Below are positions 21,190-43,205 of a stretch of DNA of 64,000 nucleotides, piece by piece. The stretch lies in contig NZ_CP014796.1 of the NCBI RefSeq assembly GCF_001969385.1, positions 3,303,501 to 3,367,500 on the forward strand. The letters run 5' to 3'. How positions within the stretch are numbered: the first letter of the stretch is position 1; each line of letters opens with the position of its first letter. A program made the translations under genes and the position numbers. Origin of the DNA: Salipiger profundus (GTDB taxonomy: Bacteria; Pseudomonadota; Alphaproteobacteria; Rhodobacterales; Rhodobacteraceae). The notes under the pieces were generated by a model. It saw only the letters and a program-made list of their open reading frames with translations. It was not told the origin of the DNA and did no database searches.

Positions 21190-21206
21190 GCCCTCTTATC
21201 CTCCCC

Positions 21207-21234
21207 GGCGGGGCGGCCCTCGTGCCGTCCCGCC
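21207..21234 (+). other. Intercistronic stem-loop between binding protein and ATPase genes
   Basis: A 10-bp stem (GGCGGGGCGG / CCGTCCCGCC, one G-U pair) with an 8-nt loop occupies the 66-nt gap. Such structures commonly protect the upstream mRNA or partly terminate, giving more binding protein than membrane components. Confidence 0.5.
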
Positions 21235-21255
21235 ACCCAGACTTTCCCCGACAGG

Positions 21256-22770: not shown

Positions 22771-23758
22771 CCTGTTCCGAACCCACAAGATCGAGATGCG
22801 GCTCGCGGTGGTGCTGGCGCTTCTGTGCCTGTTCCTTTCGGTGAGCGCGCCGCAATTCGCCACGCTGAGCAACATCACCTCGCTGTTCAACAACAGCGCC
22901 GTGAACCTGATCTGGGCGGTCGGCCTGCTGGTGGTGCTGATCGCCGGCGGCATCGACATCTCCTTCGCCGTCGCGGCCTCGGTGGTGCAATACGTCGCCG
23001 CGAAGCTGCTGATCGGCATCGGCGGCGGCAACTGGCTGCTGGGCTTCCTGTTCTGCGGCTCGCTCGGCATCCTGCTGGGACTGCTGAACGCCTGGCTGAT
23101 CCACGGCTTCCGCATCATCTCGATCGTGGTGACCATTGCCACCTTCAACGCCTTCTTCGGGCTGCTGATGTTCTTCACCGGCGGGCGCAACATCTACAAC
23201 CTGCCCGACTGGTGGACCGCGCGGATCTTCATCTTCGAGTACGAGAACGCGCAAGGCATCTGGTCCGAGCTGACGCTTGCGGTCGCCGTGATGATCGGCT
23301 GTGTCGCCGCGACATGGCTGCTGCTGCGCCATACCAACATCGGCCGGCAGCTCTATGCCTTCGGCGACAACCCCGAGGGCGCCCGCCGCGCTGGTGTCAA
23401 CATCGCCGCGATGCAGGGCATCGCCTTCGGCTGGAGCGGCCTGATGGCCGGCATCGCGGGCCTCATGCAGGTCAACATCGTGAAGGAAGTCGTCCCCAAC
23501 GCGCTTTACGGACGCGAGCTCGACGTGCTGGCCGCGGTGGTGCTGGGCGGAGCCCGTCTCGGTGGCGGGCGCGGTTCGATCCTCGGTGCGGTGCTGGGGG
23601 TGATGTTCGTCGCGGTCACGCAGAACGGCCTGAACCTGCTCGGCATCTCGCCCTTCGCCTTCCAGATGATCATCGGCGCCGCGATCCTGATCGCGATCTC
23701 CACCTCCAACGTCGATCTCTCGGAACTCTTCCACCGCCGGAAAGGAGGCCGCGCATGA
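22763..23758 (+). CDS. Sugar ABC transporter permease (RbsC family), first
   Basis: A 331-residue permease with about 8-10 membrane helices and the family motifs VLIAGGIDISFAV (residues 58-70) and GGARLGGGRGSILGAVLG near residue 258. It overlaps the ATPase gene by 8 bp and the second permease by 4 bp, so the operon likely makes a heterodimeric channel. Confidence 0.92.
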   Translation: MRNLFRTHKIEMRLAVVLALLCLFLSVSAPQFATLSNITSLFNNSAVNLIWAVGLLVVLIAGGIDISFAVAASVVQYVAAKLLIGIGGGNWLLGFLFCGSLGILLGLLNAWLIHGFRIISIVVTIATFNAFFGLLMFFTGGRNIYNLPDWWTARIFIFEYENAQGIWSELTLAVAVMIGCVAATWLLLRHTNIGRQLYAFGDNPEGARRAGVNIAAMQGIAFGWSGLMAGIAGLMQVNIVKEVVPNALYGRELDVLAAVVLGGARLGGGRGSILGAVLGVMFVAVTQNGLNLLGISPFAFQMIIGAAILIAISTSNVDLSELFHRRKGGRA

Positions 23759-24798
23759 CCCCGTCCAACACGACCGCCAAGCCCAAGGCGCGGGCCGAGG
23801 CCCGGCAGCCGGGCGGACTGAAGCGCCTGGTCGGCGGCGAGAACGCCGGTCTGCTCATCCTGCTCGCTCTGCTCGTTGCGGCCTTCTCGATCGCCTCGCC
23901 GCGGTTCCTGACCGGCGCGAACCTCGGCTCCATGGGGTTCCAGATGCCGCTGCTGGGCCTGCTCACGCTGGCGATGCTGGCACCCATCGTCTCGGGCGGG
24001 CTGAACCTCGCTATCGTCTACACCGCCAACATCAGCGGCCTGACGCTTGCCTGGACCTTCATGCAGCTCGGCGGTGCCGACGCGGGGATCATGGCGCTGA
24101 TCCTCGGGACCGTCGCGGCGCTGGCGGTGGGGGCCGCCTCGGGCGCGGTGATGGGCGCCGTCGTCGCCTATGTCGGCGCGCACCCGATCCTCGTGTCGCT
24201 GGCGATGATGATCTTCCTGCGCGGTCTGGGCGAGTTCCTGACCCGCGGCGGCGACATCTCGGGCTTTCCCGACTACATGCGCACGCTCGGCCACGGCAGC
24301 CTGATGGGCCTGCCCGTCCCGCTGATCATCTTCGCGCTGGTGGCGCTCGGTTGGCACATCCTGCTGCGCCGCACGCCGCACGGGTTCTCGGTCTACATGA
24401 CCGGATCGAACATCAAGGCGGCGGAATACGCGGGCCTGCATACCAAGCGCACGCTGGTGCTGATCTATGCCCTGTCGGGAGTGCTCTGCGCCGTTGCCGG
24501 CATCCTGATGGCGGCGCGCTTCAACTCGGTCCGCGTGGGCCACGGCGAGGCGATGCTGCTGATCACCGTGCTGGCCTGCTTCCTCGGCGGGATCGACCCC
24601 TTCGGCGGGCACGGCCGGGTGATGCCGGTCATCATCTCGCTGGTCATCCTGCAGGTGCTGTCCTCGGGGCTGAACCTCGTGGGGGCGAACCAGCACCTCT
24701 CGACGGCCGTCTGGGGCCTCTTCCTGATCGCGGTCATGATGATGCGCTCGCGCCAGGCCGCACAACTCTACCGATTTATCCTCAGAAAGGACACATGA
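23755..24798 (+). CDS. Sugar ABC transporter permease (RbsC family), second
   Basis: A 347-residue permease of the same family with a longer Lys/Ala-rich cytoplasmic N-terminus (about 35 residues) before the first helix. Motifs include IVSGGLNLAIVY and LGGIDPFGGHGRVMPVIIS. The start ATG at 23755 overlaps the previous stop (ATGA). It pairs with the first permease in the membrane; its own stop overlaps the epimerase start. Confidence 0.92.
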   Translation: MTPSNTTAKPKARAEARQPGGLKRLVGGENAGLLILLALLVAAFSIASPRFLTGANLGSMGFQMPLLGLLTLAMLAPIVSGGLNLAIVYTANISGLTLAWTFMQLGGADAGIMALILGTVAALAVGAASGAVMGAVVAYVGAHPILVSLAMMIFLRGLGEFLTRGGDISGFPDYMRTLGHGSLMGLPVPLIIFALVALGWHILLRRTPHGFSVYMTGSNIKAAEYAGLHTKRTLVLIYALSGVLCAVAGILMAARFNSVRVGHGEAMLLITVLACFLGGIDPFGGHGRVMPVIISLVILQVLSSGLNLVGANQHLSTAVWGLFLIAVMMMRSRQAAQLYRFILRKDT

Positions 24799-25646
24799 TG
24801 GAAGGTTTTGGCGTTCATACGAGCATGTGGACGATGAACTGGGACCGCGAGGGCGCCGAGCGCGCCGTTGCAGGCGCCCTTGAATACGGCGTCGACTTCA
24901 TCGAGATCCCGATGCTGCGTCCGTCCGAGATCGACACCGCCCACACTGCCGCGCTGCTCGAGAAGAGCGGCCTGCGCGCGATCTGCTCGCTCGGCCTGCC
25001 CGAGCAGTACTGGGCCTCGGTCAATCCTGAGGGCGCGATCGAGTACCTGCAACTGGCGATCGACAAGACCAAGGCCTGCGGCGCCGAGGCGCTTTCGGGC
25101 GTCACCTTCGGCGGCATCGGCCAGCGCACCGGGACGACCCCGACGCAGGGCGAATACGACAATATCGCCAAGGTGCTGGACGCGTCCTCGCGCTACGCGA
25201 AATCCGTCGACCTTCTCTTCGGGATCGAGCCGGTCAACCGCTACGAGAACCACCTCATCAACACCGGCTGGCAGGCGCGCGACATGATCGAGCGCGTCGG
25301 CTCGGACAACATCTTCATCCACCTCGACACCTACCACATGAACATCGAGGAAAAGGGCGCCGGCAACGGCATTCTCGATGCCCGCGACTACCTGAAGTAC
25401 ATCCACCTGAGCGAGAGCGACCGGGGCACCCCCGGCGAAGGCACTTGCGATTGGGACGAGATCTTTGCCACCCTGAAGGCCATCGACTTCAAGGGAGGGC
25501 TCGCCATGGAGAGCTTCATCAACATGCCGCCCGAGGTGGGCTTCGGGCTGGCCGTGTGGCGCCCGGTGGCGGAAAGCCACGACGAGGTGATGTCGAAGGG
25601 CCTGCCGTTCCTGCGCAACAAGGCCGCGCAGTATCGGCTGATCTGA
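24795..25646 (+). CDS. D-tagatose/D-allulose 3-epimerase-like TIM-barrel protein
   Basis: A 283-residue AP-endonuclease-2-type TIM barrel of the ketose 3-epimerase family. The Mn-binding and catalytic residues line up as E145 (GIEPVNRYENH), D178 (HLDTYHMN), H204 (KYIHLSESDRG) and E239 (AMESF), with the SESDRGTPGEG loop typical of D-tagatose/psicose 3-epimerases. Epimerisation at C3 would convert an imported ketohexose such as allulose to fructose, or tagatose to sorbose. ATG codons at 24795 and 24798 are both possible. It is coupled to the permease (ATGA overlap) and to the kinase (TGATG). Confidence 0.82.
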   Translation: MMEGFGVHTSMWTMNWDREGAERAVAGALEYGVDFIEIPMLRPSEIDTAHTAALLEKSGLRAICSLGLPEQYWASVNPEGAIEYLQLAIDKTKACGAEALSGVTFGGIGQRTGTTPTQGEYDNIAKVLDASSRYAKSVDLLFGIEPVNRYENHLINTGWQARDMIERVGSDNIFIHLDTYHMNIEEKGAGNGILDARDYLKYIHLSESDRGTPGEGTCDWDEIFATLKAIDFKGGLAMESFINMPPEVGFGLAVWRPVAESHDEVMSKGLPFLRNKAAQYRLI

Positions 25647-26287
25647 TGAGCCGGGCCACCGATCTGGAGGGGCTCGTCGCAGAGTCCCTCCGCCTGCTCG
25701 ACCAGCCCGGGCGACAGGTTCTGGCCATCGCCGGCGCGCCGGGCTCGGGCAAGAGCACGACCGTCGAAGCGCTGCACACGCGGCTCGAGGCCGTGCGTCC
25801 GGGCGAGAGCGCGGTCCTTCCGATGGATGGGTTCCATTACGACGACGCGGTGCTGCGACAGATGGGGCGCCTTCCCTGGAAGGGCGCGCCCGACACCTTC
25901 GACGTGGGCGGGCTGCGCTCGGCGCTGACCCGGCTGCGCGCCGACGACGAGGACACGGTGGCGGTGCCGGTCTTCGACCGCGATCTCGAGATCTCGCGCG
26001 GCTCCGCGCGGCTCGTGCCCTCGACGGTCCGTCTGATCCTGGCCGAGGGAAACTACCTGCTTCTGGACCGCGCGCCGTGGTCGGCGTTGCATCCACTGTT
26101 TGACCTGACCTGCATGATCGACGTGCCCGAAAGCGTGCTGGCCGAACGGCTGCGCGCACGCTGGGTGGGCTACGGTCTCGACGCCGAGGCGATCCGTCAC
26201 AAGCTCGACGGGAACGATCTGCCGAACGGGGCCACCGTGCGCGGGCAGAGCATTCCGGCAGATCTCGTGTTCGCCATGGAGAGCTAG
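25646..26287 (+). CDS. P-loop sugar/nucleoside kinase-like protein (FrcK/URK-like)
   Basis: A 213-residue P-loop kinase: Walker A GAPGSGKST at residues 30-38, a MDGFHYDDAVL segment near 62-72 typical of the uridine kinase/pantothenate kinase-like group, and LILAEGNYLLL as the Walker B-like strand. A similar kinase (FrcK) accompanies the fructose ABC genes of rhizobia. As the last gene of the importer-epimerase operon it probably phosphorylates the epimerised sugar, though this has to my knowledge not been firmly shown for the family. Its start shares one base with the epimerase stop. Confidence 0.75.
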   Translation: MSRATDLEGLVAESLRLLDQPGRQVLAIAGAPGSGKSTTVEALHTRLEAVRPGESAVLPMDGFHYDDAVLRQMGRLPWKGAPDTFDVGGLRSALTRLRADDEDTVAVPVFDRDLEISRGSARLVPSTVRLILAEGNYLLLDRAPWSALHPLFDLTCMIDVPESVLAERLRARWVGYGLDAEAIRHKLDGNDLPNGATVRGQSIPADLVFAMES

Positions 26288-26571: not shown

Positions 26572-27219
26572 TCAGTCCCAGTCGGGCTTGTGGATGCGGA
26601 CCAGTTCCATCACCTCGGCATCGCTCAGCAGCACCGGGTCGCGGTCGCGCAGAAGAAGCGCCAGCTTCGAGGTCTCCTCGAGCTCTTCCATGGCGTAGAG
26701 CGCCGCCTCGAGGTCCTTGCCCGCGACGACGGGGCCATGATGCGCGAGGACCATCGCCGAGCGCCGTCCGGCGAGCCCCCGCACCGCTTCGCCCATGGCC
26801 GGATCGCCGGGCCGGAAGTAGGGCAGTCGCACGACCTTGCCGAGCCGCATGATCGAGTAGGCGGTGAGCGGCGGCAGCATGTTCTCGGGATCGACGTCGC
26901 GCAGCATCGACAGCGCCGTCGAATGGGTCGAGTGCAGGTGAACCACCGCGCCGGTGGACGCGCGGGTGTCGTAGAACGCCGTGTGCAGCGGCATTTCCTT
27001 GGTCGGCCTGTCGCCGTCGATGTGCCGGCCCTCGGCATCGAAACGCGACAGCCGGGCGGGATCGAGCGTGCCCATCGACGCGCCGGTCGGCGTCACCAGC
27101 AGCCCGCCGTCCGGCAGCCGGGCCGAGATGTTGCCCGAGGCGCCGCCGGTCAGCCCGCGATCGAAGATCGACCTGGCGATGGTGCAGATCTGCTCGCGCA
27201 GCGCGGTCTCGGCGCTCAT
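26572..27219 (-). CDS. otnC: 3-oxo-tetronate 4-phosphate decarboxylase (class II aldolase family)
   Basis: A 215-residue class II aldolase/adducin-fold protein. The metal site is visible as H94 and H96 (VVHLHSTHS) with a third histidine in LAHHGPV near residue 158, and E75 is in the catalytic position. OtnC decarboxylates 3-oxo-tetronate 4-phosphate to dihydroxyacetone phosphate. The assignment rests on the family and on its direct coupling (ATGA overlap) to the OtnK kinase, with OtnI just upstream. It is the last gene of the long minus-strand locus. Confidence 0.88.
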   Translation of the reverse strand: MSAETALREQICTIARSIFDRGLTGGASGNISARLPDGGLLVTPTGASMGTLDPARLSRFDAEGRHIDGDRPTKEMPLHTAFYDTRASTGAVVHLHSTHSTALSMLRDVDPENMLPPLTAYSIMRLGKVVRLPYFRPGDPAMGEAVRGLAGRRSAMVLAHHGPVVAGKDLEAALYAMEELEETSKLALLLRDRDPVLLSDAEVMELVRIHKPDWD

Positions 27220-28475
27220 GCTTCGCCCTCCCCGGTGCCGAGGATGCCGGCGGCGGTCTCGAAGAAGTCATCCTCGCCGAAGTTGCCCGACTTCAGCGCC
27301 AGCGTGAGGTCCCCCGCGCGCAGCGCCGGGGCGCCGGGCGCGATCTCGGGGCCGATCTCCAGCGCGTCGATGCCGAGGCCTTCGACCACCGCGCCGGAGG
27401 TCTCGCCCCCGGCCGCGATCAGCCGGGTCACGCCGCGCGCCACGATCTGCCGGGCAACTTCGGCGAAGAGGGCCTCGAGCGCGCTGGCAGCACGGTCCCG
27501 GCCGTATTCCTCCTGAACCGCGCGCACGGTTTCCGGGTCGGCGGTGGCATAGGCGAGCGGCAGTTCGTCCGCGTGCCGCATGATCCAGTCGGTCACGTCT
27601 TCGGGCGTCGTGCGGCCTTCGATCACGTCGCCGGCGACGATCCGCAGCGCCGGGTGCGACGCGGCATGCCGGGCGACCTGCGCGCGGGTCTGGCGCGAAC
27701 TCGATCCGGCGAGGATGGCGCAGGGCCCGGCGTTGCCGCGCCACGCCGCGCCGTCCCCTGAGAGCTTGCCCCGCTCGCGGAAATTGGCGGGCAGCCCCAT
27801 GGCGATGCCCGATCCCCCGGTGACCAGCTTCAGCCCCGCGCAAGCGGCGCCGATGGCCATGAGGTCGGCGTCACAGACGGTATCGACGACCTGCATCCGA
27901 CGCCCCGCTTTGGCCTCGGCCTGCATCCGGGCGCGGATGGACTCTGCCCCGCCATGCACGGCGTCGAAGGGCACATGCCCCACCGGCTCGGAGAGTTGAA
28001 GGGCCAGCCAGCGCCGGATGTCGGGGTCGGTCATCGGGGTCAGCGGATGCGCCTCCATGCCGCTTTCCGAAAGCAGCGTATCCTTAACGAAGAGATGGCC
28101 CTGGTAGACCGTGCGGCCCGCCCCGGGAAACGAGGGGACGACCGGCACGATCGAGGCGCCCAGCCGGTCGGCGAGTGCCGCCGCAACGGGGCCGATGTTG
28201 CCCTGGGGCGTGGAATCGAAGGTCGAGCAATACTTGAACACGATCTGCTCGCAGCCCTGCGCCAGCAGCCAGTCGAGCGCGGCAAGCGAGGCGCGGACCG
28301 CGTCCTTGACCGGGACGGTGCGCGATTTCAGCGCCACGATCCCGGCCTCGACCGAGGGCGCCGCTGCACCCTGCGGCACGCCGCTGTATTGCGTCACCGC
28401 CATGCCGGCCTTGGCCAGCGTGTTGGCGATGTCGCTCGATCCGGTGAAATCGTCTCCGATCACGCCCAAAAGCAT
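27216..28475 (-). CDS. otnK: 3-oxo-tetronate kinase (DUF1537 family)
   Basis: A 419-residue four-carbon acid sugar kinase. The N-terminal domain starts with the substrate-binding GVIGDDFTGSSDIANTLA (residues 4-21) and contains FKYCSTFDSTPQGNIG near 94-109; the C-terminal nucleotide-binding domain has RLIAAGGETSGAVVE and LALKSGNFG near the end. OtnK phosphorylates 3-oxo-tetronate at O4. The length is normal for the family. ATG 28475 begins directly at MLLGVIGDD; no better upstream start was seen. It overlaps otnC and lies 76 nt after otnI. Confidence 0.9.
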   Translation of the reverse strand: MLLGVIGDDFTGSSDIANTLAKAGMAVTQYSGVPQGAAAPSVEAGIVALKSRTVPVKDAVRASLAALDWLLAQGCEQIVFKYCSTFDSTPQGNIGPVAAALADRLGASIVPVVPSFPGAGRTVYQGHLFVKDTLLSESGMEAHPLTPMTDPDIRRWLALQLSEPVGHVPFDAVHGGAESIRARMQAEAKAGRRMQVVDTVCDADLMAIGAACAGLKLVTGGSGIAMGLPANFRERGKLSGDGAAWRGNAGPCAILAGSSSRQTRAQVARHAASHPALRIVAGDVIEGRTTPEDVTDWIMRHADELPLAYATADPETVRAVQEEYGRDRAASALEALFAEVARQIVARGVTRLIAAGGETSGAVVEGLGIDALEIGPEIAPGAPALRAGDLTLALKSGNFGEDDFFETAAGILGTGEGEA

Positions 28476-28551
28476 GTGTCGCTCCCTCGGGGTTTGGTCT
28501 CCCGCGCGCAGGCGGGGCATTGTTGGTCTTCGGCGAGGCCGGGCACCGGCC

Positions 28552-29337
28552 TCACGCGGCGGCGCGGTCAAAGGCCTCGGCCATCGCGCGCAATTCCGGC
28601 AGGCCGTCCTCGACCGTGCTCGCGGGCAGGTATTCGCAGCCCACCCAGCCGTCGTAGCCGCGCGCCGCAAGATGCGCGAGGAACCGCGCCATGTCGACCG
28701 TGCCGCCAAACGGTTCGCGCCGGTCCGGGACCGAGGCGAACTGGACGTGGCCGACATGCGGCGCGGCGCCGTCGTATTCCGCTTCGGGCGACAGGCCCTC
28801 GCGGCCGACGTGGTAGGCGTCGAACATCAGCCGGGTGCGGGCGAGCCCTGCGCCTTCGATGATCTCCAGAGCCTGTTCGGGCAGGTGATAGAAATAGCCC
28901 GGCTTGTCGTGGCGGTTGAGCGGCTCGAGCAGCAGCGTCAGTTCGGGCGCGGCCTCTTCGGCCCAGCGGAGGTTCTCGGCCATCGCCGCGCGGCCCGCCG
29001 CGTCGAAGGCGGTGATCCCGGCCATGACGTGCACCCTGCCCGCGCCCGCCTCGCGCGCGTAGTCGGCGGCGCGGTGAAAGCTCTCGCGGAAGTCGGCCTG
29101 CCGCCCGGGCAGCGCCGCGAGTCCCGACTCTCCGGCCGACGTGTCGCCGAGCGGCGAGTTGAGCGCGAGCAGCCGCACGCCCGCGTCGGCGCAAGCCCGG
29201 CGCACGTCGGCTGCGGGCACGTCGTAGGGCCAGTGCAGCTCGACCGCCGGAAAGCCCGCCGCGCCAGCGTGTGCGATGCGGGTGAGCAGCTCCTCTCCGG
29301 ACCAGAGGAAGCCGAGATTTGCCGAGAAACGCTTCAT
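28552..29337 (-). CDS. otnI: 2-oxo-tetronate isomerase (hydroxypyruvate isomerase family)
   Basis: A 261-residue TIM barrel of the hydroxypyruvate isomerase (Hyi/OtnI) family. Expected metal ligands are E138 (LLEPLNRHD), D173 (MFDAYHVG) and E235 (GCEYLP). OtnI interconverts 2-oxo- and 3-oxo-tetronate. Next to OtnK and OtnC this assignment is preferred over glyoxylate-pathway hydroxypyruvate isomerase. The spacing to the neighbours is short (61 and 76 nt) and all run in the same direction. Confidence 0.88.
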   Translation of the reverse strand: MKRFSANLGFLWSGEELLTRIAHAGAAGFPAVELHWPYDVPAADVRRACADAGVRLLALNSPLGDTSAGESGLAALPGRQADFRESFHRAADYAREAGAGRVHVMAGITAFDAAGRAAMAENLRWAEEAAPELTLLLEPLNRHDKPGYFYHLPEQALEIIEGAGLARTRLMFDAYHVGREGLSPEAEYDGAAPHVGHVQFASVPDRREPFGGTVDMARFLAHLAARGYDGWVGCEYLPASTVEDGLPELRAMAEAFDRAAA

Positions 29338-29398
29338 CCTTGGCCTTTCGTTGGTGTTCGTGGCGCGACACGCGGGACCGCGGCGCGCAGGTGGCAGG

Positions 29399-30160
29399 CT
29401 AGTCCGCCGTCCAGCCGCCGTCGAGCATCAGCGCGCTGCCGGTCATCAGCGCCGAGGCGTCTGAGGCAAGGAACACCGCCGCGCCGGTCACGTCGTCCAC
29501 CTGCCCGAGGCGCCCGAGCTTGATCTTCGACAGCACCGAGGCGCGAAACGCGCTGTCCTCGAAGAACGGCTTCGTCATCGGGGTCTCGATGAAGGTCGGG
29601 CAGATCGTGTTGACCCTGATGCCATGCTCGCCGAGTTCGACCGCGAGCGCTTTGGTAAAGCCCTCGATGGCCCATTTCGAGGCGCAGTAGAGCGTCCGGT
29701 CACGGGCCCCAACGTGCCCCATCTGCGAGGACATGTTGATGACCGAGCCGCCCTGCCCCGCCGCCACCATGCGCCGGGTGACCGCACGGGCGCAGAACAT
29801 CGCGGCCTTGAGGTTCAGCCCCATGACCGCGTCGTAATCCGCCTCGGTGACCTCCGAGAGCGGTTTCGGGCGGTTGGTGCCGGCGTTGTTGACGAAGACG
29901 TCGAAGGGCGCGCGCGCCACGACTGCCGCCTCGAAGGCGGCGATGTCGGTCACGTCGAGCGCCAGCGCCTCGGCAGCAAGACCGGCGGCGCGCAGCTCTG
30001 CCGCCGCGGCCTCGATCTCGGGCGCGGTGCGGGCGCAGAGGGTCACCTCCGCCCCCGCTTCCGCGTAGGCCTGCGCGATGGCGAGGCCGATGCCCCGCCC
30101 CGCGCCGGTCACCAGCGCACGCCTGCCGTCGAGCCGGAAATCGGGCAGCATGGCCGTCAT
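29399..30160 (-). CDS. Short-chain dehydrogenase/reductase of the tetronate locus
   Basis: A 253-residue classical SDR with TGAGRGIG (residues 17-24), NNAG near 88 and the YCASK active-site Tyr/Lys near 155-159. ATG 30160 overlaps the stop of the HisD-like gene (ATGA) and gives the usual short N-terminus. In the locus it is the best candidate for the enzyme that oxidises a secondary hydroxyl of an aldonate or polyol, producing a 2- or 3-oxo acid for OtnI/OtnK, but it could equally oxidise an earlier intermediate. Confidence 0.85.
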
Positions 30161-31485
30161 TCCGCCGCCTCGCGATAGGGTGCGGCCGCGCCGTAGGGCA
30201 CGTTCTGCCCGCCGTAGCGGCGCACCCGGATGTTGCACTGCTCGGCGTGGCCCACGAAGCCCTCGAGCATGCACAGGCGCGAGCCGTATTCGCCGATCAG
30301 CGTCGCGGCCTCGTCGGTGGTCACCTTCTGGTAGCTGTGGGTCTTCAGGAACTTGCCGACCCAGAGCCCGCCGGTGTAGCGGCCCGCCTTCTTGGTGGGC
30401 AGCGTGTGGTTGGTGCCGATCACCTTGTCGCCGTTGGCGACATTGGTCCGCGCCCCGAGGAACAGCGCCCCGTAGGAGTGCATCTTCTCGAGGAACCAGT
30501 CGTCGCGGTCGGTCATCACCTGCACGTGCTCCGAGGCGATGTCGTTGGCCACGTCGAGCATCTCGTCGTAGCTGTCGCAGACGATGACCTCGCCGTAGTC
30601 CTGCCAGCTCACGCTGGCGGTGCCGGCGGTGGGCAGGATCTCGAGCAGCCGGTCGATCTCGCTCAGGGTGTCCTCGGCAAGCTTGCGCGAATTGGTCACC
30701 AGCACGGCGGGCGAGTTGTAGCCGTGCTCGGCCTGCCCCAGCAGGTCGGTGGCGCAGAGCTCGGCGTCGACGGTCTCGTCGGCGATCACCATGGTCTCGG
30801 TCGGGCCGGCGAAGAGGTCGATGCCGACGCGGCCGAAAAGCTGGCGCTTGGCCTCGGCCACGAAGGCGTTGCCGGGGCCGACCAGCATGTGCACCGGCTC
30901 GATGGTCTCGGTGCCGATGGCCATGGCGCCGATGGCCTGAATACCGCCCAGCACGTAGATCTCGTGGGCACCGCCGAAGTGCATGGCGGCGATCACCGCC
31001 GGGTTGGGCTTGCCCTGGAACGGCGGCGTGCAGGCGATGATGCGCGGCACCCCCGCAACCGAGGCGGTGGCCACCGACATGTGCGCCGAGGCGACCATCG
31101 GGAACTTGCCACCGGGCACGTAGCAGCCCACCGACTGCACGGGGATGTTCTTGTGCCCGAGGATCACGCCCGGCATCGTCTCGACCTCGAGGTCGAGCAT
31201 GGTGTCGCGCTGCGCCTGCGCGAAGTTGCGCACCTGCTCCTGCGCGAACCTGATGTCGGCGACCTCGCGCTCGGAGAGCTGGCCGATCAGATCGTCGATC
31301 TCCTGCTGGCTGAGGCGGAAGCTCTCAGGGGTATAGCTGTCGAATTTCTCCGACAGCTCGCGCACCGCGACATCACCGCGGGCCTCGATGTCCTTGAGGG
31401 TGGATTCCACGATGCCGCGGGTCTTGGCGTCGTCCTCGGCCCGGTCGGCCTCGGGCATGCCGCGTTTGAGATAGGTCACTGACAT
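30157..31485 (-). CDS. Histidinol-dehydrogenase-family alcohol-to-acid dehydrogenase (sulfopropanediol dehydrogenase-like)
   Basis: A 442-residue HisD-superfamily protein. The zinc and catalytic residues of HisD are retained: Q251 and H254 (GQAEHG), E319/H320 (SEH), D353 (NGDKV), H360 (TNHTLPT) and a C-terminal histidine (FVGHAEQ). Histidine biosynthesis genes are absent, and the [18 protein letters not shown] block (residues 369-386) is that of catabolic paralogues such as HpsN, which oxidises dihydroxypropanesulfonate to sulfolactate. It is therefore likely to oxidise a terminal CH2OH of a polyol-like substrate to a carboxylate with two NAD. Coupled to the SDR. Confidence 0.8.
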
Positions 31486-31531
31486 GGTGTTTCCTTTCGA
31501 AGTCGGAGAATGGGGAAGCGGGCCGACACGG

Positions 31532-32473
31532 TCAGTCGGTCAGCCCCTGCGATGTCTTGAAGGCCACGAGCCGCGAGAGCTTGGCGTCGCGCCAGGCGCG
31601 GCGCTCGGCGAGATCCTCGGCGGGAAGCGCGGCGCGGCGTTCCTCGGTGGCCCTGGCGATGACCGCGTCGGGCCAGGGCCCGCGCGGCGGCGTGCGCACC
31701 ATCCCGGCATAGAGACCGCGCAGCCGGGCGGCGTAATCCTCGATGCCGCCGGGCGCGTTGAGGTCGATGGTCTCGAACGGCCCCATGAACGACCAGCGCA
31801 GGCCGAGACCGTGCGCGATGGTCGCGTCGATGTCGGCAAGGCTCGCGATGCCGTCCTCGTAGAGCGCCCAGGCCTCGTTCAACAGCACGCCCTGAAGACG
31901 GTTCAGAACGAAGCCGTCGATCTCGCGCGTGAGGCGCACGGGCACCTGTCCGACCTCGCGCATGAGGTCGGCGACCTGCTCGACGCCCTCCGCCGCGGTC
32001 CAGGGCGCGGGCACGATCTCGACCACCGGCACGAGATGCGGCGGGTTCACCGGGTGCGCGATCATGTAGCGGTCGCGGTTGCTGCAGTCTTCGGTGAAAC
32101 GCGAGGCGGGGATGCCCGACGAGGACGAGCCGACAAGCGTCGCCGGGCCGATGGCGGCGTCGAGCTCGAGGCTGACGGCGGTCTTGGCCTCGACCGTCTC
32201 GAACACCGACTCCTGCACGTAGAAGGCGCCCTCGACCGCCCCGGCCAGCGTGTCATGCACGCTGAGCCGCGCCAGCACGGTCTCGGGGTCGTCCACCAGT
32301 CCGACCTCCTGAAGGTCGGCAAGACTGTCCTTCGCCCACGACAGGATGCGCCCGCGCACCTCTTCCGAGGGGTCGTAGGCGCGGACGGTATAGCCCGCGC
32401 GGGCGAAGACGAGCGCCCAGCCCGAGCCCACGAGGCCCGCACCGACGATGGCGATGGTTGTGTTGTCGGTCAT
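31532..32473 (-). CDS. 3-hydroxyacyl-CoA-dehydrogenase-fold oxidoreductase, CRYL1/L-gulonate 3-dehydrogenase-like
   Basis: A 313-residue protein with a Rossmann domain ([13 protein letters not shown], residues 9-21) and the all-helical C-terminal domain of 3-hydroxyacyl-CoA dehydrogenases. The [17 protein letters not shown] block contains the catalytic histidine, and the ending is that of the lambda-crystallin/L-gulonate 3-dehydrogenase and L-carnitine dehydrogenase group rather than of fatty-acid oxidation enzymes. A 3-dehydrogenation of an aldonate fits the tetronate locus. Its start shares one base with the stop of the metallo-hydrolase gene. Confidence 0.82.
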
Positions 32474-33360
32474 CAGGACACCTTCGAGCTTTCACCGTCG
32501 GCAAGGCAGATCTCGGTGATCCGCAGGCCCTCTTTCGAGATCCGCGACGGGAAGGTGTCGTTCAGTCGCTCCTCGTGGATCGGGATCACGCGGCGCGCCT
32601 CGTAGCCCGCCTGCGACATCATCTCCTCGGTGGCGAGGATCAGGTTCGTCTGGCTGCCGACGGCGAGGCCGACCGGGGTATACATCTCCTCGACATCGAC
32701 GACCGAGCCGTCGTTGGTGATGTTGTCGAACTGGTAGACGAGGTCGCCGGCCAGAACCCAGGTGTCCTCGGACTGTTTCTTGCCGTCGTTGCGCACGGTG
32801 ACCCACATCGAGCCCCAGGTGTGGCTGTCGGGCGCGGCGTGCAGGTCGATGCCGGGCAGCACGTCCTCGACCGCGCCGTCGACGGTCACCAGCCGCTTGT
32901 CGCGGGCAAGATCGACGCCGCGGACGATGTCGCCGGGGTCGACCGCGACCATCATCCAGCGCATCCGGTCGGGCAGCGACATCGCCCAGACCCACTTCGA
33001 GATCTCGCGCTCCTGGATGTAGAATTTCGTGTTCGGGAAGTCCTCGACGTTGCCGAAGTGATCAAAGTGGGCATGGGTGATGAAGCAGGTGTCGACCTCT
33101 TCCGGGGTCACGCCGACCTCGGCCAGCACGGTCTTGGGGTCGCGCCAGTTCTCGACGCCGAACCGGTCGCCGAGGGTCTTGCCGTAGTCCTTGTCGTTGT
33201 AGCCCACGTCGACCATGGCGACATGATCGCGGCCCTTGATGACGACGTAGCAGTAGGGAAGCTTCACGTAGCCTTCGTTGTGCGCGCCGTAGAGCACGCC
33301 GCTCTTGTGGTAGTTCGGCACGTAGCTGTACTCGAGCACCCAGATGGAATAGTCAGCCAT
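32473..33360 (-). CDS. Metallo-beta-lactamase-fold hydrolase (AHL-lactonase-like)
   Basis: A 295-residue MBL-fold protein with the dinuclear metal motif HAHFDH (residues 96-101), a downstream histidine in PDSHTWG (about 180), an aspartate in LAGDLVY and the last histidine in IPIHEE. The arrangement is that of the lactonase subgroup that includes AHL lactonases. In this setting hydrolysis of a sugar-acid lactone (for example a tetronolactone) is more plausible than quorum quenching, because it is coupled to sugar-acid dehydrogenases and no LuxI/LuxR genes are present. Confidence 0.8.
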   Translation of the reverse strand: MADYSIWVLEYSYVPNYHKSGVLYGAHNEGYVKLPYCYVVIKGRDHVAMVDVGYNDKDYGKTLGDRFGVENWRDPKTVLAEVGVTPEEVDTCFITHAHFDHFGNVEDFPNTKFYIQEREISKWVWAMSLPDRMRWMMVAVDPGDIVRGVDLARDKRLVTVDGAVEDVLPGIDLHAAPDSHTWGSMWVTVRNDGKKQSEDTWVLAGDLVYQFDNITNDGSVVDVEEMYTPVGLAVGSQTNLILATEEMMSQAGYEARRVIPIHEERLNDTFPSRISKEGLRITEICLADGESSKVS

Positions 33361-33388
33361 TCTTCTCCTCCATGGAACAGATGTTGTT

Positions 33389-33952
33389 TCAGCGGCTTGG
33401 CTGCTGGCCGCAGCAGCAGCAGGCCTGTGACAGGTCGACCATCTCGAGCCCGGCCTTCGCGGCGCTGGCGGCGCGCAGATGGGCGTAGGCGCGTTTGACG
33501 AGCAGCCCGGCGCGGTCGAGATCGGCGGCGAGCGCCTCGCCGCCCCGCGCCTGTGAGAACGTTCCCATCGCAAGGCGTGAGAATTGCAGCGCGGCATCGA
33601 GCTGCGCCTTGTGCGCCTCGGTCCCGGTGGGCACCTTCAGCGCCCCCAGCCGGTCGCGCGCCTGTGCCGCCCGCGCCTCGCAGGCGGTGTATTCCGGCAG
33701 GTCTGTGACCTGACGCTGCGCGGTGAGCTGCGCGAGGATCACCAACCCCGAGATCTGGCCGATGATGCGGCGCAGGTCCTCGTAGACCGGGCGGCAGGCG
33801 GCGGCGTAGCGCGCCACCGCGTCCGATCCGAGCGTGACCGCGAGTTCGTCCGGCGACGCCACGGTCTCGGGCAGCGGCCCGCCGAGCGACAGCACGCAGT
33901 CGGGTTTGTGCGACTGCGCGAGCCGCGTGAAAAGATGGGTCTGGTCAGTCAT
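33389..33952 (-). CDS. Unknown 187-residue protein with a tetra-cysteine tail
   Basis: I do not recognise this family. The protein is mostly helical, Ala-rich, without signal peptide or membrane segment, and ends in QACCCCGQQPSR, four consecutive cysteines eight residues from the C-terminus; further cysteines are at about 19, 53 and 91. The start at 33952 overlaps the LacI stop by 8 bp and the gene lies 28 nt before the metallo-hydrolase, so it belongs to the operon. The cysteine run could bind a metal or a cofactor. Confidence 0.65.
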   Translation of the reverse strand: MTDQTHLFTRLAQSHKPDCVLSLGGPLPETVASPDELAVTLGSDAVARYAAACRPVYEDLRRIIGQISGLVILAQLTAQRQVTDLPEYTACEARAAQARDRLGALKVPTGTEAHKAQLDAALQFSRLAMGTFSQARGGEALAADLDRAGLLVKRAYAHLRAASAAKAGLEMVDLSQACCCCGQQPSR

Positions 33953-34991
33953 CGGCCCTCCTCCGGTCCATGACGGTGTTGCGCTCGACAAGCCTGCCGG
34001 GCGGGATGTGCAGGATGCGCTGCGCAACGTCTGTCGAAGTCGCCAGATCGGAGGCGAGCTTCACGGTCGCATCCATCATCTTCTCGAGCGGCTGCGCGAC
34101 GGTGGTCAGCCGGTGCGACGGCCAGCCGGCCATGGCGATGTCGTCATATCCCACCACCGAGATGTCCTCGGGCACCTTCAGCCCGATGCCCTCCTGCACG
34201 CCCTCGATGAAGCCGATGGCCACGATGTCGTTGGCACAGAGCACCCCGTCGGGGCGGCGCGGCAGGTCCTTGACGGCCAGCCCGGCCTCGTAGCCGGCCT
34301 CGTAGGTGAAGCGCCCGGCCTCGATCACCTGCGGCGCGACAAGTCCGCGCCGGGTGGCTTCCTCGCAGAAGCCCTGATGCCGCTCGACGTTGGTCGAGGC
34401 ATCGGGGAAGGCCGAGACGTAGAGCAGCTCGCGGTGGCCGAGGTCGGCGAGATAATCTGCGGCGAGGCGACCGCCCGCGACGTTGTCGCAGGAGATGCCG
34501 TAGCCGAGCCCGTCCTCGGACAGGCGGTTGAAGAAGATGACCGGCGCGCCGGCGGCCTCGCAGCGCTCGCGGGCATGGGATTTCAGGTTGGTCGCCAGCA
34601 CGATCATCAGGTCGGGCTGGTAGCTCAGCAGCAGATCGACCGCCTCGTCGGTGCCGTCGGCCTGCTCGGCCGAGGCCAGCATGACGTTCATCCCCTGCTT
34701 CTGCAGCAGGCTCGTGAGCCGGGTCATCACCTCGGGGTAGAACGGGTTGGTCAGGTCCGAGACCACCATGCCGACGATCTGGGTCTTCTTGGTGATGAGA
34801 CTCTGGGCGAAAGGGTTGGGCCGGTAGCCGATCTCATGCGCGCGCTCCAGCACGATCTTCCGGGTCGCCTCGGCGATGACCGCATCGGGGTAGAAGGCCC
34901 GCGAGACGGTCGACACCGACATGCCGAGATCCTTTGCGAGATCCTTCACCGTGATCCGGCTGCGCTTTGTCCTAGGCATCGTCTTTTCCAT
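33945..34991 (-). CDS. LacI-family regulator of the tetronate locus
   Basis: A 348-residue LacI/GalR protein with HTH ITVKDLAKDLGMSVSTVSRA (about residues 13-32) and a sugar-binding-protein-like effector domain. Starts at 34991 and 34979 are both reasonable; the second has GGAAAAG close upstream. It lies between the ABC importer genes and the catabolic genes, all on the minus strand, and is the obvious candidate to bind the 31-nt palindrome in front of the importer operon. Confidence 0.9.
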   Translation of the reverse strand: MEKTMPRTKRSRITVKDLAKDLGMSVSTVSRAFYPDAVIAEATRKIVLERAHEIGYRPNPFAQSLITKKTQIVGMVVSDLTNPFYPEVMTRLTSLLQKQGMNVMLASAEQADGTDEAVDLLLSYQPDLMIVLATNLKSHARERCEAAGAPVIFFNRLSEDGLGYGISCDNVAGGRLAADYLADLGHRELLYVSAFPDASTNVERHQGFCEEATRRGLVAPQVIEAGRFTYEAGYEAGLAVKDLPRRPDGVLCANDIVAIGFIEGVQEGIGLKVPEDISVVGYDDIAMAGWPSHRLTTVAQPLEKMMDATVKLASDLATSTDVAQRILHIPPGRLVERNTVMDRRRADD

Positions 34992-36370: not shown

Positions 36371-37396
36371 TCAGCGACCGAGACCGCGCAGTTTCTGGAA
36401 AAGCTCCTCGCGCAGCAGCAGCAGCGCCGCGAGAATGATGGATCCCTCGATGATCGTGCGCAGGCCGAATTCGAGCCCCAGCGCCGAGATGATGGTGCCG
36501 AGGATGGTGAGCAGCAGCGCGCCGCCCACGGTCCCGAGGAAGGTGCCCCGCCCGCCGAGGATCGACGAGCCGCCGATCACCACGGCGGCAATCGAGGGCA
36601 GCAGGTAGTCGTCGCCCATGCGCAGCGTGGCGCCGTTCGAGTAGCCGACCAGCGCGATGCCGACGAAGCCGGCGCAGACGGCGCTGATCACGTAGGGCAG
36701 GATCCGCACCAGCGCGACCGGAACACCGGCGTTGCGCGCCGCGTCGACGTTGGTGCCGACGGCGTAGAGATAGCGGCCGTAGACGGTGCGGCTCTGGAAC
36801 AGCCAGCCCGCGATGGCGAAGATCACCAGCGCCACGACCGGCGTCGGCAGGCCGAGGACCTGGCTCTTCATCAGCGCGACGGCGGCGTCGGGCGCGGCGC
36901 CGCGCGGCGTGCCGCGGGTATAGCCCAGCAGGCCCGAGGCCACGATGATCGACATCGCCATGCTCATGATGAACGGCGGCACGCGCAGCCAGAGGACGCC
37001 CGCGCCGGTGGCCAGCCCCACGAGCCCGCAGGCCGCCAGCACGCCGGGCAGCAGGTACCATTCTCCAGGGTTGCCGGCGCCCACCCAGCTCGTCGCGAGG
37101 ATGCCGCCCATGGTGATCGTCGCGGGCAGCGACAGGTCGAGACCGCCGGTCAGGATCACCACGCCCTGCCCGAAGGACAGCACCACGAGGAAGAAGCCCA
37201 GCACCAGAACGGTTTCCACCTGCGACCACGAGCCGAGGGCGGGGTTGATGAGCCGCGCGCTCAGCAGCAGCAGCACGCACAGGATCGCGACGCTGACGGT
37301 GCTGACGGTCTCGCGGGTGAGCCTGGCACTGCCGCGTGTGTCTCCGGTCTGGGTGAAGCCGGTCTCGGGGGTGGCGGTCTTGCTTGTGGCGGTCAT
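36371..37396 (-). CDS. Sugar ABC transporter permease (RbsC family)
   Basis: A 341-residue permease with a cytoplasmic N-terminus of about 30 residues and 8-10 helices. VILTGGLDLSLPATI and IGGSSILGGRGTFLGTVGG are the RbsC family signatures. The start at 37396 overlaps the stop of the upstream permease (ATGA), and the gene is followed after 45 nt by the binding-protein gene. Confidence 0.92.
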   Translation of the reverse strand: MTATSKTATPETGFTQTGDTRGSARLTRETVSTVSVAILCVLLLLSARLINPALGSWSQVETVLVLGFFLVVLSFGQGVVILTGGLDLSLPATITMGGILATSWVGAGNPGEWYLLPGVLAACGLVGLATGAGVLWLRVPPFIMSMAMSIIVASGLLGYTRGTPRGAAPDAAVALMKSQVLGLPTPVVALVIFAIAGWLFQSRTVYGRYLYAVGTNVDAARNAGVPVALVRILPYVISAVCAGFVGIALVGYSNGATLRMGDDYLLPSIAAVVIGGSSILGGRGTFLGTVGGALLLTILGTIISALGLEFGLRTIIEGSIILAALLLLREELFQKLRGLGR

Positions 37397-38385
37397 TTGC
37401 GGTCTCCGAGGCGAACGAGGAAGGCGCTGAAGACGACGGCGAGGATCAGCACCGCGCCCTGGAACATGCCGGTGTAGAACGACGCGATCCCGGCCGAGAA
37501 CAGCACCTTTTGCAGAAGCGTGAGCGTGGCCGCGCCCATCATCGTGGCGAAGACGCCGCCACGGCCGCCCGACAGCGAGGTGCCGCCGAGCGCCACCGCG
37601 GCAAAGGTCAGCATCAGCAGCGGCGTGCCCGACGACGGGTTGCCGGTGGCGGTCTGGGCGCTGAGCATGAAGCCCGCGAGCCCGTAGGCGCAGCCCGCCA
37701 CCACATGCGCCAGCAGCCGCACGCGGGTGGTGTTGATGCCCGAGAGCGCGGCCGAGCTCTCGTCGGCGCCGATGGCGTAGAGCGAGATGCCGAAGGGCGA
37801 GCGCCGCAGCACCATCCAGATCACCAGCACCAGCCCGAGCACCAGCCCCGACACCGGGATCACGCCCCACAGCCGGTCGGTCATCTCGTAGGAAATCCAC
37901 TCGGCGACCCAGCCGCCGGGCGCCTTGAGGATCACCAGCGCGATGCCCTGGCAGATGATCATGGTGGCCAGCGTCGCGGCGATGGACTGGAGCTTCAGCA
38001 CCGCCACGAGGTAGCCGTTCACCACGCCCACCGCCGCGCCGATGGCAAGGCAGATCAAGACCGAGACGGCGGCGCCGCCCGGCCCTTCCAGCGGATAGAC
38101 GGCGAGCACCACGTTGCAGATCGAGATCACCCCCGCGACCGACAGGTCGAAGCCCCGGCTGATGACGATGATCGCCTGCCCGGCGGCGGCCAGTGCCAGC
38201 GGCGCGGTGTTGTTGATCAGCGCCGCGATCGAATAGGAGGTCAGCGCCTTGGGCTGCTGCACGGCGTAGAGCACGTAGAGCAGCACGTAGACCATCACGA
38301 TCAGCCCGGCACCGGTCAGGAAGCGGGTGGCAAGTCCGGGGCGGCTGTCGTGGAACGTCGGGTGTTGCAGCTGCGCGTCGGTCAT
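37393..38385 (-). CDS. Sugar ABC transporter permease (RbsC family)
   Basis: A 330-residue permease. IVISRGFDLSVAGVISICN (about residues 76-94) and LGGTSLSGGRGGVFATMMG are conserved family motifs. ATG 38385 overlaps the ATPase stop by 4 bp. It forms a heterodimer with the permease encoded next. Confidence 0.92.
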   Translation of the reverse strand: MTDAQLQHPTFHDSRPGLATRFLTGAGLIVMVYVLLYVLYAVQQPKALTSYSIAALINNTAPLALAAAGQAIIVISRGFDLSVAGVISICNVVLAVYPLEGPGGAAVSVLICLAIGAAVGVVNGYLVAVLKLQSIAATLATMIICQGIALVILKAPGGWVAEWISYEMTDRLWGVIPVSGLVLGLVLVIWMVLRRSPFGISLYAIGADESSAALSGINTTRVRLLAHVVAGCAYGLAGFMLSAQTATGNPSSGTPLLMLTFAAVALGGTSLSGGRGGVFATMMGAATLTLLQKVLFSAGIASFYTGMFQGAVLILAVVFSAFLVRLGDRK

Positions 38386-39991: not shown

Positions 39992-40022
39992 AATGGGAAC
40001 GTTCTCTGAGAACGTTCCCATT
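39992..40022. promoter_or_regulatory. 31-nt perfect palindrome, likely LacI operator pair
   Basis: AATGGGAACGTTCTC (39992-40006), a central T, then the exact complement (40008-40022). Each arm contains AACGTT, so the element can be read as two overlapping GGGAACGTTC-type sites. It lies 39 bp upstream of the ATPase start and abuts the predicted -10 box, an ideal repressor position. The LacI encoded at 34991-33945 is the natural candidate ligand. Confidence 0.7.
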
Positions 40023-40213: not shown

Positions 40214-40245
40214 AAAAACGCCCCGGCACGTTGCATGCCGGGGCG
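40214..40245 (-). terminator. Rho-independent terminator after pdxA2
   Basis: On the minus strand a perfect 10-bp stem (CGCCCCGGCA / TGCCGGGGCG) with a 7-nt loop is followed directly by TTTTTCGTTT. It lies 55 nt past the pdxA2 stop and closes the operon that begins with tctB. This is the clearest intrinsic terminator in the window. Confidence 0.85.
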
Positions 40246-40299
40246 TGGTCATTTCCAGGGGGGAGTCGCCGAACGACGGCCCTCCGGTGGGTGGGACCC

Positions 40300-41292
40300 T
40301 CAGGCCATCTGCGCGCGCTTTGCGGCCGAGAGCTTCCCCGCGTAGTCCAGCGCGGCCAGCATGTTGACGTGGTTCGCCTTGCCGGTGCCCGCGATGTCGA
40401 AGGCGGTGCCGTGATCGACCGAGCAACGGTCGATCGGCAGGCCCAGCGAGACGTTCACCGCCGTGTCGAAGGCGATGAGCTTGATCGGGATGTGGCCCTG
40501 GTCATGATACTGCGCGATGACGAGGTCGAAGGCGCCGGTGTTGGCGCGGTGATAGACCGTGTCCGCCGAGATCGGGCCCTGCACGTCGATGCCCTCTTTC
40601 TGCGCCATCGCGACGCCCGGTGCGATCTGCGTGTCGTCCTCGCGGCCGAACAGCCCGTCCTCGCCGCAGTGCGGGTTGATCCCGGCGACGGCGATGCGCG
40701 GCGCGGCGATGCCCATGCGGCGCAGGTGATTGTGGCCGGTGCGGATCGTCTCGAGCACGCGCTCGGGCGTTGCCCGGTCGATGGCGTCCTTGAGCGACAC
40801 GTGTGTCGAGACGTGCAACACGTTGAGCGTCGGCGAGGCCAGCAGCATCCACGACGACTTGCAGCCGGTGAGATGCGCGAGCATCCCGGTGTGACCGTCG
40901 TAGTGGTGGCCGGCTGAGTTCAGAGCCGCCTTGTTGATCGGCGCCGTCACGATGCACGAGGCATCCCCCGCGCTCGTCAGATCGACGGCTTTCTTGATGT
41001 AGCGGAAGCAGGCCTCGCCACAGGCTTCTGACAGCACGCCGAACTTGCCCGGCAGGCCGTCCACCGGCACGTGGATCATCTGCAGCGCCGAGGCATCGCC
41101 GCCCGGGCCCTGCGGCCTGAGCCCGAGTTCGAGACCCGCGGCCCGCACGGCGCGCTCCATCGTGTCGCTGTCGCCGATCACGGCGTAGCGGGCGCGCTCT
41201 TCGGGGCTGAGGCCGGCCATGGCCTTGGCGGTCACCTCGGCGCCGACGCCGGACGGGTCGCCCATGGTGATGACAATCGGTTGCTCTGACAT
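40300..41292 (-). CDS. pdxA2: D-threonate/D-erythronate 4-phosphate dehydrogenase (PdxA family, PdxA2)
   Basis: A 330-residue PdxA-family protein starting [12 protein letters not shown], with the metal-binding region [10 protein letters not shown] (about residues 127-136) and [13 protein letters not shown] near 263. PdxA2 proteins oxidise 4-phospho-D-threonate or -erythronate, and the product loses CO2 to give dihydroxyacetone phosphate. The four-carbon-acid kinase gene (DUF1537) in the divergent half of the locus provides the substrate, so PdxA2 is preferred over the vitamin B6 enzyme PdxA. The gene ends an operon with a strong terminator. Confidence 0.85.
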
Positions 41293-41324
41293 CTTGGTCT
41301 CTCCGGAAGGTCTGGCGGCATCCC

Positions 41325-43192: not shown

Positions 43193-43205
43193 GAGGACTC
43201 CTGGG

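What the first reader, a model, noticed from the sequence alone, without database searches (positions are those of the whole stretch)
26572..34991. Ten-gene locus that may convert a polyol or sugar lactone to DHAP through oxo-tetronates
OtnI, OtnK and OtnC form a known end-path (2-oxo-tetronate to 3-oxo-tetronate to its 4-phosphate to DHAP). Upstream in the same direction, with overlaps or short gaps, are a lactonase-like MBL protein, a CRYL1-like 3-dehydrogenase, a HisD-family alcohol-to-acid dehydrogenase and an SDR, plus an unknown protein and a LacI. HisD-family catabolic enzymes turn a terminal CH2OH into COOH. A coherent hypothesis is oxidation of a C4 polyol/ketose, or opening of a tetronolactone, to a tetronate that is then oxidised to 2-oxo-tetronate. 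I do not know this gene combination as a described pathway.
Basis: partly seen in the sequence, partly recalled or inferred. Interest (0 to 1): 0.75.

Follow-up and report, generated by a model that had tools for sequence, protein, structure and literature searches.

The report
Mobile operon beside a tetronate pathway
A gene cluster that seems to spread between bacteria, and to import and oxidise an unidentified small sugar-like compound, lies directly in front of a known pathway that turns four-carbon sugar acids into a glycolysis intermediate; it carries an uncharacterised type of dehydrogenase related to a histidine-making enzyme.

Summary
The genes are real: OtnC and OtnK pass NCBI cut-offs; OtnI does not, though its model is the best match. 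The reported span holds nine genes, not ten; the same-direction run continues to 39953 with an ABC sugar transporter, thirteen genes, behind a double LacI-type operator found once in the genome. The transporter-LacI-unknown-MBL-CRYL1-HisD-SDR part is a horizontally spread block seen in Rhodobacterales and on rhizobial plasmids. Its DNA homology stops at the SDR stop codon in four of four comparisons, and otnIKC follows it in one of seven loci read, here only. So otnIKC is an added neighbour. The HisD is neither the biosynthetic enzyme nor HpsN by the published marker: Met replaces His126 while catalytic residues stay. It pairs with an SDR in 65 of 72 loci. A CRYL1-like gene lies one gene from otnK in a congener. 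Best reading: the block oxidises a polyol or lactone to a 3-oxo-aldonate; here a C4 product could go through OtnK and OtnC to DHAP. The C4 step is unproven; two block carriers give no OtnK or OtnC match.

The parts
40218..40246 (-). terminator-like stem (13 pairs) between pdxA and the operon
   Evidence: the number of such hits in the region (7) is not above shuffles (mean 5.1, sd 2.0)
39997..40017 (.). double LacI-type operator GAACGTTCTCAGAGAACGTTC
   Evidence: its 19-bp core is found once in the whole genome at up to 2 mismatches; related double sites before the ATPase gene in L033, L039 and L121, a variant pair in L117
38382..39953 (-). sugar ABC transporter ATPase (CUT2 type)
37393..38385 (-). 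ABC permease 1
36371..37396 (-). ABC permease 2
   Evidence: position and start; the Pfam scan used a wrong frame and found nothing; homologous to annotated ABC permeases in L121 and L122
35114..36325 (-). CUT2-type periplasmic substrate-binding protein, 403 aa
   Evidence: Peripla_BP_4; best solved matches 4pe6, 4rs3, 5hko, 4rsm
33945..34979 (-). LacI family regulator
33389..33952 (-). unknown 187-aa protein with C-terminal ACCCCG, partner of the MBL gene
   Evidence: no Pfam or NCBIfam family above cut-off; 50 homologues; alignment A1
33555..33566 (-). single operator half GGGAACGTTCTC inside the unknown gene
   Evidence: AACGTTCTC at the corresponding place in L033
32473..33360 (-). metallo-beta-lactamase fold hydrolase, lactonase-like
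   Evidence: Lactamase_B; best solved match 8x78; THAHFDH, SHTWGS, LAGDLVY, VIPIHEE motifs
31532..32473 (-). CRYL1-like 3-hydroxyacid dehydrogenase
   Evidence: best solved match lambda-crystallin 3ado over 301 residues; PRK06129 401.6 bits, cut-off 347
30157..31485 (-). HisD/HpsN-like alcohol dehydrogenase, GKFPM subfamily
29399..30160 (-). classical SDR, frequent partner of the HisD-like gene
   Evidence: an SDR of 45% or more within 3 kb of HisD in 65 of 72 loci
28552..29337 (-). otnI, 2-oxo-tetronate isomerase-like (below NCBI cut-off)
   Evidence: of 29 homologue loci L157-L185, 23 show otnC within the roughly 3.7 kb held
27216..28475 (-). otnK, 3-oxo-tetronate kinase
   Evidence: NF043035 543.8 bits, cut-off 350
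26572..27219 (-). otnC, 3-oxo-tetronate 4-phosphate decarboxylase
   Evidence: NF043034 303.7 bits, cut-off 250

Best explanation
A LacI-controlled, horizontally spread transport-and-oxidation block (29399 to about 40022) has come to lie directly upstream of an otnIKC module. SHOWN by sequence: the block, its boundary, the operator, the families. INFERRED: the ABC transporter imports a small neutral polyhydroxy compound (polyol or aldonolactone). The HisD-like enzyme oxidises a terminal CH2OH next to a chelating OH to COOH. The SDR interconverts the neighbouring secondary alcohol and ketone, as HpsO does beside HpsN. The MBL opens a lactone. The CRYL1-like enzyme oxidises C3 of the aldonate to a 3-oxo-aldonate, which loses CO2. 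In this genome, if the aldonate is a tetronate, the product is 3-oxo-tetronate, the OtnK substrate, and OtnK plus OtnC make DHAP, expressed by read-through from the one LacI promoter. Confidence by step: mobile self-contained block 0.85; HisD acts on a non-sulfonated polyol-type alcohol 0.55; CRYL1-like acts as aldonate 3-dehydrogenase 0.5; C4 flux into OtnKC here 0.35.
For: The block is collinear in L033, L039 and L121, partly present in L120, and rearranged in L117 and L122. Blastn homology to L033, L039, L120 and L121 ends at window 29399-29403. Its double operator is unique in the genome and related ones precede the ATPase gene in relatives. otnI begins 61 bp after the SDR, with no second copy of the double operator in the window. 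HisD keeps E318, H319, D352, K353, H359 and H411 of CpHpsN but has Met for His126. A CRYL1-like gene lies one GntR gene before otnK, with a TRAP transporter after it, in a congener (L186). CRYL1-like genes in L129 and L130 sit with SMP-30 lactonase, SDR, a beta-keto acid cleavage gene and a distant form of the same ABC transporter. In L039 the block is followed by PdxA-family, DeoR and DUF1537 genes.
Against: No C4-acid gene is annotated beside the block in L121 or L122 and tblastn with the window's otn, pdxA and DUF1537 proteins found none in L117 or L119. No OtnK or OtnC match in Sediminimonas (G215/G786) or in the MAG G787. The best otnI outside the own genome is 52% in 283 genomes of the order, while the block is far closer to its relatives, so the two parts have different histories. 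In L039 the PdxA-family gene faces the block and the kinase has its own DeoR neighbour. HisD of the block loci does not form one clade: L121, L117 and L122 fall apart from the Rhodobacterales four, so HisD may move separately. HisD-SDR pairs occur mostly without CRYL1, MBL or otn, with SnoaL, cupin, TRAP or CUT1 genes. CRYL1-like genes also sit in non-sugar contexts: with beta-keto acid cleavage and branched-chain-type ABC genes (L133) or a thioesterase (L134). The SBP family also sits with amidase and nitrile hydratase genes (L132). An imperfect 14-bp palindrome, unlike the LacI site, lies in the sdr-otnI gap, so a separate control there is not excluded.
Confidence: 0.4

Rival explanations
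1. Two unrelated catabolic modules are neighbours by chance: the block degrades some other compound through central metabolism, and otnIKC serves tetronates made or imported elsewhere.
For: otnIKC follows the block in 1 of 7 loci read; homology ends exactly at the SDR stop; the sequence just after the SDR in L033 and L120 reads by eye as transposase fragments; Sediminimonas (G215/G786) and the MAG G787 carry the block with no OtnK or OtnC match.
Against: Same strand, 61-bp gap, no second double operator; CRYL1-like gene near otnK in an independent locus L186; DUF1537 kinase-like gene beside the block in L039.
Confidence: 0.4
2. The block acts on C5 or C6 polyols, aldonates or lactones; the CRYL1-like enzyme makes a 3-oxo acid that decarboxylates to a ketose, as L-gulonate gives L-xylulose in the uronate pathway (recalled), and otnIKC is not used.
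For: The best solved match is lambda-crystallin, whose family is recalled as L-gulonate 3-dehydrogenase; transporter and repressor are of sugar type.
Against: No ketose kinase or other C5-C6 enzyme was seen inside the conserved block.
Confidence: 0.17
3. The HisD-like enzyme is an HpsN and the block degrades dihydroxypropanesulfonate.
For: HpsN structures are the best solved matches (376.2 bits); Lys353 is kept; in Roseobacteraceae HpsN is often in an operon with the SDR HpsO (PMC11131964, passages).
Against: His126, the published HpsN marker (PMC11382572, passages), is Met in the window and His in 0 of 112 orthologues; the genome has another HisD paralogue with GRYAH; no sulfolactate or sulfite-releasing gene was seen in the block.
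Confidence: 0.03

Closest known systems
L-threonate / D-erythronate catabolism through OtnI, OtnK, OtnC
   Same: otnK and otnC pass the equivalog cut-offs; otnI is best matched by its model
   Different: no ltnD or denD was recognised among the thirteen genes; an oxidation block with HisD, CRYL1 and SDR lies upstream instead. [quoted passage not shown]
HpsN-HpsO (DHPS dehydrogenases)
   Same: HisD-fold enzyme with conserved catalytic residues, next to an SDR
   Different: Met instead of His126; CUT2 ABC transporter and LacI, where Ruegeria pomeroyi has TRAP genes hpsKLM (PMC4334477, passages); no sulfonate genes seen
CRYL1 / L-gulonate 3-dehydrogenase
   Same: aligns over residues 7-307 of 313 with lambda-crystallin; HPVNPP stretch
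   Different: bacterial, in a polyol/lactone-like operon; substrate untested
CRYL1-like plus beta-keto acid cleavage plus SMP-30 clusters (L129, L130)
   Same: CRYL1-like 3-dehydrogenase, SDR, lactonase and a distant form of the same ABC transporter
   Different: the block here has no beta-keto acid cleavage gene

Membership tests
3-oxo-tetronate kinase OtnK | NCBIfam NF043035 cut-off 350 bits | tested here: met
   543.8 bits
3-oxo-tetronate 4-phosphate decarboxylase OtnC | NCBIfam NF043034 cut-off 250 bits | tested here: met
   303.7 bits
2-oxo-tetronate isomerase OtnI | NCBIfam NF043033 cut-off 325 bits | tested here: not met
   214.2 bits; otnC lies beside homologues in 23 of 29 loci read, so it may work like OtnI
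otn tetronate operon | a tetronate dehydrogenase (LtnD or DenD) in the operon | tested here: inconclusive
   none recognised by Pfam/NCBIfam among the thirteen genes, but only the best 25 of 232 NCBIfam matches of the SDR were listed and the permeases were not scanned with NCBIfam; the rest of the genome was not searched
HpsN (DHPS 3-dehydrogenase) | His126 of CpHpsN | tested here: not met
   Met in the window; GKFPM in 109 of 112 orthologues, no His in any of the 112
HpsN (DHPS 3-dehydrogenase) | oxidation of R-DHPS to R-sulfolactate | not testable with these tools
   needs enzyme assay
Histidinol dehydrogenase (biosynthetic HisD) | NCBIfam TIGR00069 cut-off 243.8 bits | tested here: met
   430.8 bits; this model was not tested for separating HpsN-like proteins
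Histidinol dehydrogenase (biosynthetic HisD) | grouping with the genome's own presumed biosynthetic HisD | tested here: not met
   37-38% identity to the G000:C1:335286 copy, which has Tyr where this protein has the Lys353 equivalent; separate branch in a 28-sequence tree
CRYL1 / lambda-crystallin | full-length similarity to lambda-crystallin | tested here: met
   residues 7-307 of 313, 204.7 bits
CRYL1 / lambda-crystallin | L-gulonate or aldonate 3-dehydrogenase activity | not testable with these tools
   needs enzyme assay
MBL-fold lactonase | dinuclear metal motifs HxHxDH...H...D...H (motif recalled) | tested here: met
   THAHFDH at 95, SHTWGS at 179, LAGDLVY at 203, VIPIHEE at 258
AHL lactonase (AiiA, AttM, AidB and others) | NCBIfam cut-offs 325-475 bits | tested here: not met
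   at most 32.9 bits for the six lactonase models listed

The most novel reading that the evidence does not exclude
A third catalytic subfamily of the histidinol dehydrogenase fold (GKFPM type), common in Rhodobacterales and rhizobia and usually paired with an SDR, oxidises a tetritol straight to a tetronate; a CRYL1-like 3-dehydrogenase then makes 3-oxo-tetronate, which OtnK and OtnC turn into DHAP. That would be a polyol-to-DHAP route with no polyol kinase, assembled here by placing a mobile oxidation block in front of otnIKC.
Probability: 0.25. Interest if true: 0.7.

Novelty: new variant of a known kind. Interest (0 to 1): 0.48.

Why it matters
The HisD-like subfamily is annotated as histidinol dehydrogenase of histidine biosynthesis in the plasmid records opened here, yet 145 of 292 genomes sampled from the order, own genome included, have a match at E 1e-150, and the marker residue speaks against both HpsN and the biosynthetic enzyme. 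Finding its substrate would correct many annotations and probably name a carbon source used by marine and rhizosphere bacteria. The block also gives a clean genetic test, because its double operator occurs once in the genome.

Tried and rejected
HisD as HpsN: rejected on the marker residue. HisD as the biosynthetic enzyme: the genome has a separate presumed HisD at 37-38% identity. otnIKC as an inherited part of the block: rejected by the boundary comparison. An OtnC on contig C121 of G785 (the genome of L033, Limimaricola cinnabarinus) looked at first as if the otn genes continued past the L033 contig end; it is only 74% identical, in K-C-I order, and the roughly 300 bp after the SDR in L033 are not otnI. 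A class-wide search for the MBL at E 1e-100, made after the first plasmid search, found only the own genome, 1 of 385. Literature: ten searches listed no paper on this gene combination; only open-licence PMC papers are held, so absence there is weak. Papers seen as passages only: PMC4334477, PMC11131964, PMC11382572, PMC5445326, PMC10580937; others only as search listings. That 4rs3, 4rsm and 5hko bind polyols is recalled and was not found in print.

Limits: the 80 HisD loci are the best 80 of 561 relatives, and 8 of them were dropped for having under 3 kb downstream, so 65 of 72 describes close relatives only. Downstream of the SDR only about 300 bp can be read in L033 and about 670 bp in L120. 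G215 and G786 look like one assembly, since the contig coordinates agree. The terminator scan is not above chance in number. The tree was printed without support values.
Full report
What is there. On the minus strand from 39953 down to 26572 run thirteen genes: ATPase, two permeases, SBP, LacI, a 187-aa unknown, MBL, CRYL1-like, HisD-like, SDR, otnI, otnK, otnC, with gaps from -8 to +134 bp. OtnC and OtnK pass their NCBI equivalog cut-offs; OtnI does not (214.2 against 325) though its model is the best match. Among solved structures the HisD-like protein is nearest to HpsN, the CRYL1-like one to lambda-crystallin, the MBL to 8x78.

Regulation. Just before the ATPase start is a 21-bp double palindrome, 39997-40017, built of two LacI-type sites. 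Its 19-bp core, at up to two mismatches, occurs once in the 5.4 Mb genome. Related double sites stand before the ATPase gene in L033, L039 and L121, and a variant pair in L117. A terminator-like stem lies upstream at 40246-40218; the only other minus-strand hit in the scanned region is a 5-bp stem inside lacI; the total number of hits is not above chance. No second copy of the double operator lies in the window; a different imperfect 14-bp palindrome lies in the 61-bp sdr-otnI gap. One transcript from ATPase to otnC is therefore possible but not shown.

The ATPase-to-SDR block is collinear in Limimaricola cinnabarinus (L033), a Rhodobacteraceae MAG (L039) and a Pararhizobium gei plasmid (L121); MBL-CRYL1-HisD-SDR is left on a Sediminimonas contig (L036, read again as L120); G313 (L117) and a Mesorhizobium ciceri plasmid (L122) have transporter-HisD-LacI-unknown-MBL-CRYL1. 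A second M. ciceri plasmid appeared in hit lists only. Blastn homology with L033 (89% over 10.6 kb), L039 (73%), L120 (80%) and L121 (74% at that end) stops at window 29399-29403, the SDR stop. What follows differs each time; in L033 and L120 the next 300 and 670 bases read by eye as transposase fragments. otnIKC follows the block in 1 of 7 loci, the window. The MBL is found in 1 of 20 genomes of the genus and 4 of 390 of the order at E 1e-60, and in 1 of 385 of the class sample at the stricter E 1e-100, the own genome counted each time. OtnK is found in 14 of 20 genomes of the genus, own included, the best other at 64%. The two parts have different histories. Against a single moving unit: in the HisD tree the block copies of L121, L117 and L122 do not group with the four Rhodobacterales copies.

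Do block carriers need otn? With the NCBIfam models, G000 and G313 have both OtnK and OtnC (in G313 on another contig than the block); G785 (L. cinnabarinus) has OtnC, on a contig that begins inside what looks like the end of otnK; G215 and G786, which look like one Sediminimonas assembly, and the MAG G787 have neither; the two plasmid records have neither but are only plasmids. So the block seems able to exist without OtnKC.

The HisD-like enzyme. At the position of CpHpsN His126, named as the mark of HpsN (PMC11382572, passages), the window has Met130; 109 of 112 distinct orthologues at 65% identity or more, among the loci held then, read GKFPM, the other three GAFPM, GKYPM and GKYPL. Residues equal to E318, H319, D352, K353, H359 and H411 are kept; S226 is Thr. 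The same genome has a GRYAH paralogue at about 42% and a presumed true HisD at 37-38%. In a 28-sequence tree the GKFPM proteins form one branch apart from CpHpsN and the paralogues (no support values printed). 145 of 292 genomes of the order have a match at E 1e-150, own included, and 126 plasmid records at E 1e-130. Of the 80 named loci, 72 have 3 kb downstream: 65 have an SDR of 45% or more on the same strand, 1 a CRYL1-like gene, 1 the MBL, 0 otnK or otnC. Contexts seen include SnoaL-cupin-CUT1 clusters, TRAP clusters, and NAD transhydrogenase or NAD-synthesis genes. HisD plus SDR is thus the commoner pair, resembling HpsN plus HpsO; the CRYL1-like gene joins it in the block and in L127, L128, L202 and, less closely placed, L203.

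The CRYL1-like enzyme. In L186 (a congener) it is followed by GntR, otnK and a TRAP transporter. In L129 and L130 it sits with SMP-30 lactonase, SDR, a beta-keto acid cleavage gene and a distant form of the same ABC transporter; L130 also has a glycerate kinase. These contexts fit oxidation of the 3-hydroxyl of sugar-type acids. Others do not: L133 and L134 pair it with beta-keto acid cleavage beside branched-chain-type ABC genes or a thioesterase. 3-Oxo-tetronate is the named substrate of OtnK, so for a C4 acid this enzyme could feed OtnK without OtnI. This is inference.

C4 link. For: otnIKC here; a DUF1537 kinase-like and a PdxA-family gene beside the block in L039, the latter facing it; PdxA-family and DUF1537 genes elsewhere in this window; CRYL1 near otnK in L186. 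Against: none annotated in L121 and L122, none detected in L117 or L119, and the chance rate of such neighbours in catabolic islands was not measured. I give the C4 route 0.35 in this genome.

Verdict. A horizontally spread, LacI-controlled oxidation block, with an uncharacterised HisD subfamily, has otnIKC next to it in this genome.

Noticed in passing
33389-33952 and L117, L118, L121-L126: The unknown gene, or a small gene like it, directly precedes the MBL gene in nine of nine loci compared (chosen from MBL hits), from alpha- and gammaproteobacteria and with differing partner genes (GMC, aldo-keto reductases, others). Each copy has a Cys-Cys pair within about 35 residues of the C-terminus (window, L117, L118; six others). 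It may be a conserved partner of this MBL family.
   Followed up: partly
40300-48832: A second C4-acid-like set: PdxA-family, 2-hydroxyacid dehydrogenase, DHDPS-family and TctABC on the minus strand, Fe-ADH and a short DUF1537 kinase-like gene on the plus strand.
   Followed up: no
49604-53067: nadC and nadA models pass their cut-offs, with an ORF between; in Alloyangia pacifica (L211) nadA, L-aspartate oxidase and nadC directly follow HisD-SDR.
   Followed up: no
20137-26287: A second ribose-type ABC transporter followed by a psicose epimerase-like gene (24795-25646, below the NCBI cut-off) on the plus strand, converging on otnC.
   Followed up: no
L215, L216, L217: Other otnK genes on plasmids, each followed by an 'aldolase' gene, lie with TctABC and a SAF-domain or 'FlgA' gene and no annotated otnI, suggesting another dehydrogenase that yields 3-oxo-tetronate.
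   Followed up: no
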